Source: Desarmillaria ectypa (Eukaryota > Basidiomycota > Agaricomycetes > Agaricales > Physalacriaceae). Taken from it: a DNA stretch of 64,000 nt. Numbering within the stretch: position 1 is the stretch's first letter; the number at the start of each line of letters is the position of its first letter. The notes beneath the pieces were generated by a model that was not told the DNA's origin, did no database searches, and worked only from the letters and a program-made list of their open reading frames with translations. Both the position numbers and the translations under genes were made by a program. The stretch covers positions 806,001 to 870,000 of the forward strand of contig JAUDYN010000003.1 of the NCBI GenBank assembly GCA_030407005.1, written 5' to 3'. Below are positions 1 to 27,830 of this stretch, one piece after another.

Positions 1-3000
1 CTGTTGTTGCTTCGTTAGGGCCAGCAGATGAGTATCGCGATCCCTTGGATTTTTGTTGGACAACAACAATGAAGATGAATGAAATTAACTTCGCACCGGT
101 AGTTGTCGTGCTTGCGGCCATAGTGGTACTTTCAGTAAGCGTCGCGCTGTGCCCTTCCGCACGACACTGACTGTGCTTTCATAGCTAACGATCTGGTTTC
201 CAATCGCACTCCGTAGTGTCATCAAGCATTCTGTCCCCAAAGTTGATCGATATACTGGCTTGGGCAGGCTGAGAAATAGCGTGGATCTTGATGGAGAGTA
301 CCATCGACTCTTAGCTCGGGATCAAAACCCGTTTGCATTTCTTTATAGCGGTAAGCATGCCAATTATCAGCCATTGGTGCTCTTTTGACTTTGAAGGCGC
401 CAGGTTATCGTCGTGGTTGGGGAACTTACCAGTCCACTTACCTCTTCGCCAAATTTAACACGCTTGTCATCATCGCGGTCATTGATCCTGACAATTGCCT
501 GTTTCGATCCTTTTCTCGTTCTACCATCTCCATCGTCCGACAAGTATTGCTCCTGATTTCCACTATCGGGTTCTTCCTGGCTCAATGCATCTTTGCGCCA
601 TTTCTTGATCCGGTCAATAATGCCAGCGAATGGACATCCAGGCTGAATTATGTGGCCACGGCTACTATTGCTTTGCTGGTAGCTCTCGACGTTCCTGGGC
701 AAAATATTTACAGCGTGTATCTGCTCTATATGTACGTGTCAAACCTTTTCCACAAAGACATGGCTCAACGGGGTTTTTAGAATTTATATCATCACTTATG
801 GATTAAGCATATGTGAGTCTAATTCCGCTATGGGAACGACACCGTAAACCCGTTTTCTAGATTTTACTATAATTAATTTGGGTCCTGTACGTCGGGTGGT
901 CAAGAGTAAATATACTTAACATGTTTGATACATCTGGAACTAACACGCCCTAGGGCTCACGCGCAGGATAGATTTCAGTAAGTCACGTAGCCGTCATATA
1001 TTTGCGTACTGATGCAAGTCTACAGGCATTGATATTTTTTCTCCCCGGTAAAGAGACTTAGTATTTCTTTGGTTCAATCCAACTAAGCATGCAATCCTGC
1101 AGACTGGATCTTTCCCCTCTCTCTCCCCACACCAGGCGACGCATATGGCAAGAATCAATCACAGCGCTATTATTAACAAGTCCCGAGTGTAGGATCCCCG
1201 CGAAGCAGCGCATGGTGTATGCCCAGGCTCGAGACTCCGAATTCCCGCCATATCTTCTGAAATTCCGCGGAACGCCTGCCGAAAGACACGCAGAGAATCT
1301 CAAGGTAAAATAAAAATTCACAACAAAGTGGATGTGATCGATGACCTCTGGATTAGATTTTACGCGAAATCGGTTCGCTCAAGTATAATAAGGCATCCGC
1401 GTTGTTATCTGGGCCAGATTACGAGTGGTTTAAGAAACTAGAGTCCCAGATACAGAAACACTTCATCGGCCCCGACTGCTATTGGAAACCATCTGAAACT
1501 AAGCCAGAATTAGTAGGATGCGCTAACTTCTTCGGCAACGCCTGGTGGATACCCTTTCCTCCTACGCTGGTTTGTTTTATATGCGTCCATAATTTATCGA
1601 TTTTCTAATGTCACTCACCACCTAGGTGCTTCGCTACGACAGCGGTTCATACGCTGTTTTACAAGAAGTAGCTGATCTTGAAGCGTATATATCCCAGAAT
1701 TCTTCTCACAGCATTCGCGGACGGCGGCATATACGACTGTCACTTAGAGCACTTGACGGACAGGTGGTCAAGTGGCCGTACGAGCATATAACGGTGAAGC
1801 GCTGCCTTTATTAATTCTCGAGCTGGCTGGTCTGACATCTTAATAGCCCATCGGATCGCAATCTCCTTTATCTTGGGGTCGTAGAAGATACACTACCCAG
1901 TCTTCAACCCATTACGATTATTGCGTTCTACGAATCAAGCGCCGTGGTCATCTAGCCTGGCAGGGCCTTCAGTTAGGAAGCGGTTTTGATATACGACTGG
2001 CTTACTCAAAGAAGCTGGACCTTGATGGCAGTGTCATTGGATTAAACGACGATTTCGATCTCACACCGCCGCTTGCCCGCCTTCTCATGTTGAACAGCCA
2101 ACTTATTTCTTCAAGACTTGGATACATCGAAAGTACGTTAGCCAGTTACAGACGGCACCACAGAAGAGAATGTCGCCGGAAATCGGAGGCTCTAACATAT
2201 CGCTTTTTGTCCCATGTCTATGACCATCCGCGCGAGCCTTCGGGCCTTACGGCTAGCTCCATAGAGCTGGAGAAGGATCCACGAGTGCGGGTGTTAATGT
2301 CCGGAAGCGAAGAGGTGTTCTCAGCAGCTTACACTCGCTTTTCGGCTGTATCTGTCAATGAAACGAGTACTTGGTGGTATATATTCTGGGTATGTTTTCG
2401 AAAAGACGCTGTTTTCATGTGATTTACATGCACTCTTAGGATGATCTCTGGCGACGGAATCACGACACTATATCAGGATTAGAGCTTCATGCGACTGACT
2501 TCAATCCATATTACCCAACATCTATTGCCTACACTCCTCTTCCTCGAGCAGCGCTGGAGACATTTCTCACTCAGCGAGGTCTTCTATCAAAGTCGCCGCG
2601 CTGGGGCGATTTCTTCCACCCTGGCTTTTTGAATAAACTATACCTACGTCTGAATGAAACAGTATTCCGTGGGTCCAGTAGAGTGTGTCTCTTTTTTCGA
2701 CCTGCTATATAATTTCTCATGTTCCTGCAGGCAATTTTATTCCACATTGGACAGGACCACTCAGAGTTAGACATGGAAGATATAGATCTTGACACTTTGG
2801 TTCAACCTTCAACGTTAGGCACAGGAGGTGGGACAGATCATGACAATTCCTCCATTCAGGCTAGGCCTGCATATAGGTGGGAAGGCTTGCTTAGCGATCC
2901 TGTGCTCAGGGGGTCCAGACTAAGGAAGAATTTCCTTGCCAAGCTTGGTGCGTGGATGGGTATAACTCCACTGTGGAGATCTGGGGTACCGTCGCCGGGC

Positions 3001-3105
3001 CTTTCACTCGACGTTCGGATGGAAAATGGACGATACGTGCTGCTCGATGATGGTTCCAGCTTTAGGGGGAGCCACGTCGATAGCGTGAAGCTTGATAACT
3101 TATGA
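1..3105 (+). CDS. Agaricomycete-type multi-exon membrane protein, function unknown (5' end outside window)
   Basis: The gene enters from the left edge and ends at TGA 3103-3105. Spliced reading gives a hydrophobic helix near 70-134, then (385-780) a segment starting GYRRGWGTYQS with about three further helices around VRQVLLLISTIGFFLAQC and NYVATATIALLVALDV, then a soluble C-terminal part. Likely introns include 135-184, about 732-780 and about 1304-1355; each restores a continuous frame. Motifs RRIWQESITALLLTSPE, GTPAERHAENLK and LLSGPDYEWFKKLESQ match, from memory, a large Agaricomycete protein family with no assigned role. The C-terminal half (about 2087-3105) is soluble and mixed charged, ending in a beta-rich stretch. 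Exon edges between 780 and 1090 are not resolved. I do not know a function; membrane location is inferred from hydrophobicity. Confidence 0.6.
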
Positions 3106-3225
3106 TAATGATTGAACGACCTATAACGAGGATTGTATCATAGCGATTTGATCACATCAATATCAAAATACTGTGACACCATCAGCTAAGCAGCCGTAGG
3201 CCAAGTGGAGCAGACAATGAAGAAG

Positions 3226-5138
3226 TCAGGCAATGATGCAATAATCTAGGATAAAATGTTTCTCTGCCAGCGTTGGAGAAACATCCTGAGGCTCTCTTTC
3301 GACGATCCACTTGGCCTTGAACTCCTCCTCCAGGGGAAGGAAGTCCTCCACCGGCGTATGACCTGCCGCTATAGCGTCAACTAGCACAGAAGGTAATTCG
3401 GCTTGCTCAAGCACAGACAGATGAATCGTTTCGTTGGTAATGCTGTTAACGCTCAGAGGCAATTTGCGCTCCGTGGCGAAAAACAAAGACGACACGCCTG
3501 TTCTAGGGCTAATCGCGATCAGTCAATGAAAACAGGGAAAACATAATCGCTTACTTGTGCGGCTTCTGAGCACCCCAAGGTGCAACAGGCGAAGGAACAG
3601 AGCGTAGATATTCCATGTCTAGGGACAACATATCCTGAATGTTAGCCTACCAGTGTTAGGTCAGCTTTATTTTAAGACGCTGATGCTCTGATTCTTACCG
3701 CCATCCAAATCAATGCTATATCTGCCAGGTCGTGATCTCGATATCCTCCTCCTATCTACAGAAAAAAGTTGGATAAGAACTTGAAAAGGGATCAGTGCGA
3801 TGGCTTACATCCGAATGGCACCCTAAGGACCATTTACTTCTTCACATTTTCGCGTACAATATATATTCAGGGGACTTACCACCAAACCAGCACTGATAGA
3901 CAGTCAAGTCAGATAAAAAAGACGTAGCTTTTTAGCGATAGTTGCCCCACCTGTTTAAGGATCTGCCCTTTACTGAGACCTTCAGGCGCTCGCTCATACT
4001 TTGCACAATCCTTTGATACCAACAAAAAAAAAAAGTCAGAAGAATAACGACACCCGGAGACAGGCTTGTTCTTACGAAATCTCGGCGCGTTTCATTCAGC
4101 GCTAAAGCGTGGTATGCCCGTTTGATATGTTCTCCCAAGACTCTGTCAGGAAAGCCAAATATCTCTCTCGCTTTCTTGAGATTGAGAGTAAGCTCGTCAG
4201 GAAGCCCGAGGGAACCGACAGTTTCGAATACGCCGACGCATCTAAGTCGAATATAAGTAGACAGTACCGAAACCGGTATAAGTCAATATTCACTTGATGG
4301 AAAATGGAGTATTAACACGCTGCATCCCAAGTGCATCTGGTTTCGTAAAAGCATGCAGTTCATCTCTCAGTAACCGTCGCTCTTTTAAACAAATAATGAG
4401 TTTCAACACTTTTGAGATAATTGGATAAACATGCCCGTTTCGTCGTCACTTTTAGCAAGACGTTGGTAAGCAATAAAGATTCGAGCAAAGTTATCCATGT
4501 CTCTGCGGTCGAGGAGACCGATGGCTCCCTGAAAAATGGGATACAGGTACATTAAGGCCGAAGAGAATAGCAAGGTCGCCTACAATGAACATGGCTACCA
4601 TACGCGCCGTATAGGCACCCTACAGAGAGTTTTCAACAGGAATCAAGGGACTATCTGCTTGGCTAGTTTTCCTCACCCTCGAAAATCCGAATAGAAATAT
4701 CTAAAGGCAATAAGCAGATGCGTCAGGTGTATGAAATGCTTCCATACCTCGTCACCTGGAAAATAGTTCCTGAGAGCGGCTCAGCGGCTCCGCGTCCAGT
4801 AAAGGAGAGGAGAGAACGAACAGAGCAATAAAGGCATAGACTTCCTCTACTTTATCAGCTGGAGACGGTGCGATATCAGAGCGTGGCTGGAGCATTGAGA
4901 ACAGAACAGGTACCTAAAGATCCTCCAGTGGTCGCTTCGAGGGAAACACATGAGAATGAGTGTTCGGGATAGAAATGACCTTGCTTATTACCATCGATAT
5001 ATTCATCATAGAGGTTTCCCTCGGAACCTATTCCGGATTGATAGAACACAATTTGCTGTATTGGCGGATCGGATCTAGTATCTTCGTTCGTGATTGTTCT
5101 TGCGAGTCTCTATAGCGTCAATTGCAACAGTGTTACAT

Positions 5139-26843: not shown

Positions 26844-27049
26844 TACTTCAAAGCTTTCAAAGTGTGAAAAGAAGTGATCTGATTCCCAAGTAAAAGTACG
26901 AATGGTAAGAACGATGCTGCGCTCGAATATATAAGAAAGAAAGTCCTGTGCTGCCAGCGCACCTCCTTTGACTTGTAACATAATTGCACATGCACCGCTG
27001 ATTTGACCATCAGAATTTGGAGGTCGCCATGAGGAGGCAGACATACCAC

Positions 27050-27641
27050 TTAATAAAGCTCGATCTTCCCGCCGACAGACTTAACTGCGAGATGCAGGGG
27101 AGGGGGAAGATCCCGTCTGTCGTATGGGACAATAGTTCCATCGGGGCTCTTGGAGGCTTGTTCAACGGGTACATCTCGCTTGTCATACGGTATGATGGTT
27201 CCATCAGGACTCTTAGCCGCCTGGTCCACTGGGACATCTCGCTTATCGTACGGAACGATGGTCCCATCAGGGCTTTTCGCGGCCGCTTGAACTGGGACGT
27301 CGTCCCGTTTGTCGTAGGGAACGATGACACCGTCCGGACTTTTCGCGGCCGCTTGAACTGGGACATCGTCCCGTTTGTCGTACGGAGTTATGACACCATC
27401 AATGCTCCTGGTTGGGATCTCAGGGGATATGATTTGCCTCTTGGACACGTCAGCAGTATATGCAGTGATGAGATCCAGAGGAGCTGGGGAGCGTGCAATG
27501 ACTTGACGCTAAACAGTGGATCAACAAAACAAATAATGGCATTGAAACAAGAAAGTGTACTTGGAGAAACACAGGATGAGCAAGAACTTGGGATGCCAAC
27601 AGAGCGGCGAAGGACGCAAAAAGAGTCGCACGGGCGAGCAT
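27050..27641 (-). CDS. Secreted KEX2-processed repeat protein (six-peptide precursor)
   Basis: Two coding exons, 27573-27641 and 27050-27508, joined by a 64-nt intron, give 175 residues. Residues 1-21 (MLARATLFASFAALLASQVLA) form a clear signal peptide. A propeptide of about 24 residues ends VSKR at 44-47. Then six peptides of 19-20 residues follow, separated by dibasic sites KR (46-47, 68-69, 90-91, 112-113, 133-134) and RR (154-155). Consensus: D(D)VPVxQAAKSPDGTIVPYD. The first begins QIISPEIPTR and the last ends GGKIELY at the stop, so outer copies have diverged. The layout matches fungal KEX2-processed repeat proteins, which include repellents and dikaritin-type RiPP precursors. No Cys, so not a disulfide-rich effector. 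The peptide's role is unknown. Confidence 0.85.
27053..27436 (-). repeat. Tandem repeat encoding six 19-20 aa peptides
   Basis: Imperfect 63-66 bp units in the second exon of the secreted repeat protein. The middle units are nearly identical in DNA (for example two copies containing CAAGCGGCCGCGAAAAG), while the first and last are diverged. Unit length is always a multiple of three. Confidence 0.93.
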
Positions 27642-27716
27642 AATGATGAACAAGTGAGCTTGATGGAAAGAAGGTGAAGCTGCAGGCGTCCAGGCCTTGC
27701 AAGGAAAAGAAAACGA

Positions 27717-27822: not shown

Positions 27823-27830
27823 CTTTTATA
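27823..27830 (-). promoter_or_regulatory. TATA box of the repeat-protein gene
   Basis: TATAAAAG on the minus strand, 182 bp upstream of the ATG at 27641 and 55 bp before the 5' UTR intron donor. It lies in the 315 bp promoter shared with the divergent ESF1 gene; its orientation favours the repeat protein. Strong TATA boxes in fungi often mark highly or conditionally expressed genes. Confidence 0.5.

What the first reader, a model, noticed from the sequence alone, without database searches (positions are those of the whole stretch)
27050..27641. Uncharacterised KEX2-processed multi-peptide precursor with six evenly spaced peptides
Seen directly: signal peptide, propeptide ending KR, then six 19-20 residue units with consensus D(D)VPVxQAAKSPDGTIVPYD, each bounded by KR or RR. 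The four middle units are near identical and the outer two have drifted, as expected for copies made by unit duplication. Known: fungal secreted proteins cut by Kex2 at such sites yield hydrophobins-like repellents, pheromone-like peptides and dikaritin RiPPs. Inference: this gene makes several copies of one linear or modified peptide. The conserved Tyr just before the site (PYDKR) recalls Tyr-containing dikaritin cores, but no DUF3328 (UstY-like) gene is in this window, so an unmodified signal peptide is at least as likely. I do not recognise the peptide sequence from any described family.
Basis: partly seen in the sequence, partly recalled or inferred. Interest (0 to 1): 0.88.

Follow-up and report, generated by a model that had tools for sequence, protein, structure and literature searches.

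The report
Mushroom multi-copy secreted peptide precursor gene
This mushroom gene encodes a secreted protein that is probably cut into about six small peptides; it belongs to a peptide family already described in ink-cap and other mushrooms, whose job is still unknown.

Summary
A minus-strand gene (27641..27050, one 52-nt intron) encodes a 179-aa precursor: signal peptide, pro-region, then six units of 19-20 aa set off by KR/RR sites. Changes between units fall mostly on third codon positions of this frame (pS 0.56-1.00, pN 0.04-0.15); the antisense frame shows no such pattern. So the peptide sequence is held by selection and the copies are old, not fresh duplicates.

"Uncharacterised" is wrong. 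The units resemble the peptides of Coprinopsis cinerea KEP 497993 (PMC9769878), detected by mass spectrometry as linear pyroglutamyl peptides; its knockout showed no phenotype in axenic culture. Three searches gave 30 homologues. The gene was found once in its genome, among ordinary genes, with the nearest UstYa (DUF3328) match 2.5 Mb away, so a cyclised dikaritin is unlikely.

Distinctive: five of six units begin with Asp, where 90 of 122 homologous units begin with Gln, so most copies here cannot take the pyroglutamate cap. A pro-region motif (SPxPLxxIxxY) recurs in 16 of 30 homologues. Verdict: new member of a known kind. Processing and function are inferred; no transcript or peptide data were available.

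The parts
27579..27641 (-). signal peptide, residues 1-21 (MLARATLFASFAALLASQVLA), cut predicted by eye before His22
   Evidence: read from the translation; hydrophobic core and small residues at -3/-1; no signal-peptide program was run
27509..27560 (-). intron, 52 nt, GT..AG
   Evidence: one of eleven in-frame choices, picked because the product matches P0002 across the junction
27437..27508 (-). pro-region encoded by exon 2, ending in KR, with the motif SPAPLDLITAY at 27458-27490
   Evidence: motif found in 16 of 30 homologues above shuffles
27371..27436 (-). unit 1 QIISPEIPTRSIDGVITPYD + KR (the only Gln-headed unit)
   Evidence: 10 of 18 residues identical to C. cinerea QIPAELPTKSINGNIEPY, 0 of 200,000 shuffles score as well
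27305..27370 (-). unit 2 DDVPVQAAAKSPDGVIVPYD + KR
   Evidence: selection test
27239..27304 (-). unit 3 DDVPVQAAAKSPDGTIVPYD + KR
   Evidence: selection test
27176..27238 (-). unit 4 DVPVDQAAKSPDGTIIPYD + KR
   Evidence: selection test
27113..27175 (-). unit 5 DVPVEQASKSPDGTIVPYD + RR
   Evidence: selection test
27050..27112 (-). unit 6 DLPPPLHLAVKSVGGKIELY, drifted, followed by the stop codon (27052-27050)

Best explanation
A Kex2-processed repeat protein (KEP) of the family of C. cinerea KEP 497993, found once in this genome. The signal peptide sends it into the secretory pathway, a Golgi kexin cuts after KR/RR, and a Kex1-like carboxypeptidase trims the basic residues. About six linear peptides of 19-20 aa or slightly less are released, of the form [Q/D]-[I/V]-P-x-x-...-G-x-I-x-P-Y(D); unit 1 is probably capped as pyroglutamate, the others are not. 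The peptide is the selected product, most likely used outside the cell as a signal or in dealings with other organisms. Shown here: gene anatomy in the DNA, resemblance to the published family, selection on the peptide frame, no UstYa match nearby. Inferred: splicing, cleavage, trimming, capping and all statements about function. The confidence below is for identity and linear processing; for an extracellular signalling or biotic-interaction role I would say about 0.4.
For: Even dibasic spacing beyond shuffles. Third-position changes in the peptide frame, not in the antisense frame, in 6 of 6 unit pairs. 30 homologues with the same layout or pieces of it. The long C. cinerea peptide scores against units 2-5 as well as only 2 of 200,000 of its shuffles, and against unit 1 as 0 of 200,000; six other KEP-paper peptides used as negative controls gave 730 to 4734 of 5000. 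Vogt et al. detected linear pyroglutamyl peptides from that KEP, lost in its knockout (PMC9769878). Kexin-like, carboxypeptidase S10 and DPPIV-type matches exist in the genome.
Against: No transcript or peptide data from this species. The full C. cinerea KEP 497993 sequence was not retrieved: C. cinerea appears in none of the three protein search lists, so the link rests on published peptide strings. The short C. cinerea peptide QVPVDEPA fits less well (1313 of 200,000 shuffles). The profile search contained the typed C. cinerea peptide and earlier hits, so its E-values for those are not independent. The published knockout had no phenotype, which neither supports nor denies a signal role. Only one kexin P-domain was found although C. 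cinerea has three kex2 genes (intron-blind search).
Confidence: 0.8

Rival explanations
1. A dikaritin-type RiPP precursor whose Tyr is crosslinked by UstYa-like (DUF3328) enzymes encoded elsewhere in the genome.
For: Tyr in every unit and a KEP layout; the genome has 18 UstYa matches, 16 over the cut-off, several per gene in places.
Against: Nearest UstYa match is 2.5 Mb away on the same contig, whereas Umemura reports a mean distance of 3.09 genes where such genes accompany KEPs (PMC7329392). Detected peptides of the related C. cinerea precursor are linear (PMC9769878).
Confidence: 0.05
2. The protein works mainly uncut or as a surface layer, like the repellent peptides of Ustilago Rep1, and the dibasic sites are incidental or serve assembly.
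For: Rep1 is a KEP-like precursor whose peptides form amyloid-like fibrils (PMC9769878 introduction). Repeats are common in structural proteins.
Against: Units here are short, acidic (pI 4.1-4.3 for five of six) and Pro/Gly bearing, unlike hydrophobic repellent units (the comparison with repellents is recalled); related peptides are found free in culture fluid.
Confidence: 0.08
3. An alpha-pheromone-like precursor, with Ste13-type trimming of N-terminal dipeptides, used in mating or hyphal recognition.
For: Alpha-type precursors share the layout, and Ste13-signature KEPs exist in basidiomycetes (PMC6339444 passages); DPPIV-type matches exist here.
Against: No XA or XP dipeptide follows the sites (units begin QI, DD, DV or DL). 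Basidiomycete mating pheromones are prenylated a-type peptides (PMC9769878).
Confidence: 0.04
4. Chance repeat or antisense frame: the real gene is the 208-aa plus-strand frame at 27017-27643.
For: That frame is open across the repeats.
Against: Changes between units are largely synonymous in the minus frame and more often amino-acid-changing in the plus frame, 6 of 6 pairs; homologues match the minus frame.
Confidence: 0.01

Closest known systems
Coprinopsis cinerea KEP 497993 (Vogt et al. 2022, PMC9769878)
   Same: KEP layout; unit resembling QIPAELPTKSINGNIEPYKV (10 of 18 identical to unit 1, 7-8 of 18 to units 2-5); conserved in agaricomycetes by that paper.
   Different: C. cinerea detected peptides begin with pyroglutamate; here five of six units begin with Asp. 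Full-length comparison was not possible.
Desarmillaria tabescens EV420DRAFT_557786 (P0002)
   Same: 58% identity over the whole length; same pro-region; unit 1 nearly the same (EIISPEIPARSIDGIITPYN).
   Different: Middle units differ (QIPVEDPVNSAGG..., DVPVEGPVDNPDG...) and the last unit is cut down to DGKIELY.
KEP type #7 (G-1/P-2) of Umemura 2020 (PMC7329392)
   Same: Single copy (1.03 per strain), Tyr with Asp nearby, 0 of 64 near DUF3328, genera include Armillaria, Coprinopsis, Termitomyces; its incidental Pfam list includes SspK, which the window protein also hits below cut-off (E 0.26).
   Different: Motif figure and member table could not be read, so sameness is inferred.
Dikaritins (ustiloxin, phomopsin, asperipin-2a precursors)
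   Same: Signal peptide plus Kex2-spaced repeats with Tyr.
   Different: No UstYa gene nearby; short YxIx-type core of ustiloxin/phomopsin absent; detected products of the related precursor are linear.

Membership tests
Kex2-processed repeat proteins (KEPs) | N-terminal signal peptide | tested here: inconclusive
   Judged by eye from the translation; no predictor was available.
Kex2-processed repeat proteins (KEPs) | at least three similar units between dibasic sites | tested here: met
   Five units bounded on both sides, one on the N side; beyond shuffles.
Kex2-processed repeat proteins (KEPs) | actual cleavage by Kex2 | not testable with these tools
   Needs peptidomics or expression.
C. cinerea KEP 497993 family | unit sequence like the published peptides | tested here: met
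   Long peptide: 2 and 0 of 200,000 shuffles; short peptide 1313 of 200,000; six negative controls not distinguished from shuffles.
C. cinerea KEP 497993 family | full-length alignment to KEP 497993 | not tested
   The sequence did not come up.
C. cinerea KEP 497993 family | N-terminal Gln (pyroglutamate) on the units | tested here: not met
   1 of 6 units, against 90 of 122 in homologues. I treat it as a trait of detected peptides, not as a strict requirement, since P0002, P0003, P0012, P0023 and P0026 also have units with Asp at the first or second place.
KEP type #7 of Umemura 2020 | match to the published motif or member list | not testable with these tools
   Figure and supplement not readable; inferred from genera, copy number, Tyr/Asp and lack of DUF3328.
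Dikaritins | UstYa/DUF3328 gene close to the precursor | tested here: not met
   18 matches in the genome, nearest 2.5 Mb away.
Dikaritins | crosslinked Tyr in the product | not testable with these tools
   Needs mass spectrometry.
Alpha-type pheromone precursors | XA/XP dipeptides after the Kex2 site (Ste13 signature) | tested here: not met
   Units begin QI, DD, DD, DV, DV, DL.

The most novel reading that the evidence does not exclude
In this lineage a widespread agaricomycete secreted peptide has been switched from a pyroglutamate-capped form to a free acidic (Asp) N-terminus in most copies, while one Gln-headed copy (unit 1, like the peptide detected in C. cinerea caps) and a conserved pro-region peptide (SPAPLDLITAYTADVS) are kept. 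One precursor would then deliver three distinct signals with different lifetime or receptor.
Probability: 0.15. Interest if true: 0.55.

Novelty: new member of a known kind. Interest (0 to 1): 0.27.

Why it matters
The family is found across many mushroom genera, with detected products but no known function. The unit-level selection test says that the peptide sequence itself is what evolution preserves, which justifies a search for a receptor or target. The Gln-to-Asp difference gives a natural contrast for testing what the pyroglutamate cap does.

Tried and rejected
Dikaritin reading: UstYa (PF11807) gave 18 matches genome-wide, none in the window. Stretches around 16 of those 18 places were scanned in six frames for fragments between dibasic sites that share words: L001-L008 and eight 10-kb stretches L014-L021, with no KEP-like frame in any of them. 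Places C31:233953 and C1:1696987 were not covered; flanks at some places were only 1.5 kb; the scan ignores introns.

Paralogues: the genome was searched with the window protein, P0013, P0012 and P0009; every reported match was the window gene. The search is intron-blind, so diverged copies may be missed.

Pfam: one sub-threshold SspK match (E 0.26); five homologues gave nothing over cut-off. Glutaminyl cyclase: PF05096 gave 0 matches; M28 (PF04389) gave 7, which does not single out a cyclase. A bacterial promoter/terminator scan found nothing and is uninformative for a fungus. TATAAAAG at 27823-27830 upstream of the gene is no more than chance (2 in the window; 46 of 100 shuffles had at least 2). 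Paper searches for Armillaria or Physalacriaceae work on such peptides gave no paper on this peptide in the listings that I saw. The host species was not identified. Structure prediction was not run.

Full report
What is there. On the minus strand, 27641 to 27050, lies a two-exon gene for a 179-aa protein. The intron 27560-27509 (52 nt) is one of eleven choices that keep a long frame; it is preferred because its product aligns without a gap with the Desarmillaria tabescens protein P0002 across the junction. The protein has a signal peptide (judged by eye), a pro-region ending in KR, and six units; the six KR/RR sites are 22, 22, 22, 21, 21 residues apart, and 0 of 20,000 shuffles of the sequence after residue 22 had as many such pairs. 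Unit 6 ends at the stop codon after Tyr, with no further site.

Is it a real, selected gene? All six pairs among units 2-5 were compared; units 1 and 6 were left out as too drifted to align codon by codon. Differences at codon positions 1, 2 and 3 range over 1-4, 1-3 and 9-16. In the minus frame pS is 0.56-1.00 and pN 0.04-0.15; in the antisense frame, also open, pS is 0.12-0.29 and pN 0.18-0.38 (minus-frame values). Fisher tests, run on four of the six pairs, gave p of 4.4e-5 or less. The counts are small and synonymous divergence is beyond correction in four of six pairs, so exact dS means little, but the direction is plain: old copies whose amino-acid sequence is held.

What family is it? 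A single-sequence search gave 8 proteins, a search with an alignment of these plus a C. cinerea peptide gave 19 at E up to 0.01 (only the 7996 best candidates were scored), and a search with the Termitomyces member gave 18: together 30 distinct proteins, P0002-P0031, several of them fragments, near-duplicates or apparently faulty gene models. From 102 regular 18-residue units (76 unique) of these, Pro3 is in 76 of 76, Glu5 in 71, Gly13 in 75, Tyr in 70 and Phe in 6 at the end. The pattern used to collect them demands Pro3 and Y/F at the end and loosely a G, S or D near position 13, so only Glu5 is a free count. The window's own units have Gln, Gln, Asp and Glu at that place.

Link to published work. 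Vogt et al. 2022 (PMC9769878; I saw the abstract, introduction, two of three parts of the results, the discussion and the screening method) detected pyro-QVPVDEPA and pyro-QIPAELPTKSINGNIEPY(K) from C. cinerea KEP 497993, the first in culture fluid and mycelium, the second mainly in young caps. They report at least 13 homologues in other agaricomycetes, no visible knockout phenotype in axenic culture and no antibacterial activity of the synthetic peptides tested. The long peptide scores against window units 2-5 as well as only 2 of 200,000 of its shuffles, and against unit 1 (10 of 18 identical, aligned by the C-terminal Tyr, one offset) as well as 0 of 200,000. The short peptide is weaker (1313 of 200,000). 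Six other peptides from the paper, as negative controls, are not distinguished from their shuffles (730 to 4734 of 5000). C. cinerea itself was in none of my three protein lists, so no full-length comparison was made. A full-text search for four short strings found that paper only, and the window string KSPDGTI in no held paper.

Umemura 2020 (PMC7329392; passages and section 6) lists type #7 (G-1/P-2) as the most ubiquitous KEP type: 64 proteins, 62 strains, 49 genera including Armillaria, Termitomyces and Coprinopsis, 0 of 64 near a DUF3328 gene, with Tyr and often Asp in the motif. I think that this is the same family, but its motif figure and member table were not readable. From Le Marquer 2019 (PMC6339444) I saw passages only.

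Surroundings. Twenty frames of the window were scanned with Pfam: 18 of the 72 long non-overlapping frames and two. Fourteen of 20 had a match over the curated cut-off: MIZ zinc finger, ESF1 (two frames: RRM and NUC153), CS domain, ribosomal S9, mitochondrial carrier, two F-box proteins, 2-hydroxyacid dehydrogenase, histidine biosynthesis, Pal1, cytochrome b5, fatty acid desaturase, PfkB. Two had weak matches below cut-off (SAP, BRCT) and four had none. No biosynthetic cluster is seen in these. The genome (40.6 Mb, 32 contigs) shows this gene once, with matches for a kexin P-domain (1) beside a subtilase match, S10 carboxypeptidases (36 exon-wise matches) and DPPIV (4 matches at two places). 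All these searches ignore introns. UstYa gave 18 matches, the nearest 2.5 Mb away.

Mechanism. By the published biology of KEPs, the precursor is secreted, cut by kexin, trimmed by a Kex1-like enzyme and released as linear peptides. Two things stand out here. First, after the basic site 90 of 122 homologous units carry Gln and 9 carry Asp (the pattern picks up a few spurious pieces). By the same pattern the window gives 5 units, all Asp; it misses unit 1, so by direct reading 1 of 6 carries Gln and 5 carry Asp. The pyroglutamate cap seen in C. cinerea can thus form on one unit only. Asp-headed units also occur in Desarmillaria, a Lentinula protein and an unnamed protein (P0009), so this is a tendency, not a unique event. 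Second, the pro-region motif SPAPLDLITAY recurs before the repeats in 16 of 30 homologues at 29 or fewer of 2000 shuffles. Caveats: P0024 helped to make the profile, four Lentinula proteins and three near-identical unnamed ones are not independent, P0011 scored 49 of 2000 at a place that is not the motif and is not counted, and 13 others do not show it. It may aid sorting or cleavage, or be a further peptide.

Judgement. Interest is modest: the family question is open and the Asp change is a usable contrast, but nothing here is of a new kind.

Noticed in passing
G000:C23:3354147-3369129; C27:3687233-3691194; C12:519325-540434; C28:2810686-2814809: UstYa (DUF3328) matches lie in groups of two to four; a six-frame, intron-blind scan of 10-kb stretches there found no KEP-like repeat precursor, so their substrates are unknown.
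   Followed up: partly
G000:C12:3265381-3266757: Only one kexin P-domain match was found, beside a subtilase match, whereas C. cinerea is said to have three kex2 genes; the intron-blind search may have missed others.
   Followed up: no
window 27017-27643, plus strand: A 208-aa antisense frame is open across the whole gene; the codon test argues that it is not the coding frame.
   Followed up: yes
P0018 (last unit) and P0021 (last unit): Last units RYISPEIPTRSLNGVIELYN and AGIPSEIATRSLNGEIELY resemble unit 1 of the window and its terminal ...KIELY, hinting at two unit sub-types across the family.
   Followed up: no
window 27823-27830, minus strand: TATAAAAG about 180 bases upstream of the ATG; not above chance in the window.
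   Followed up: yes
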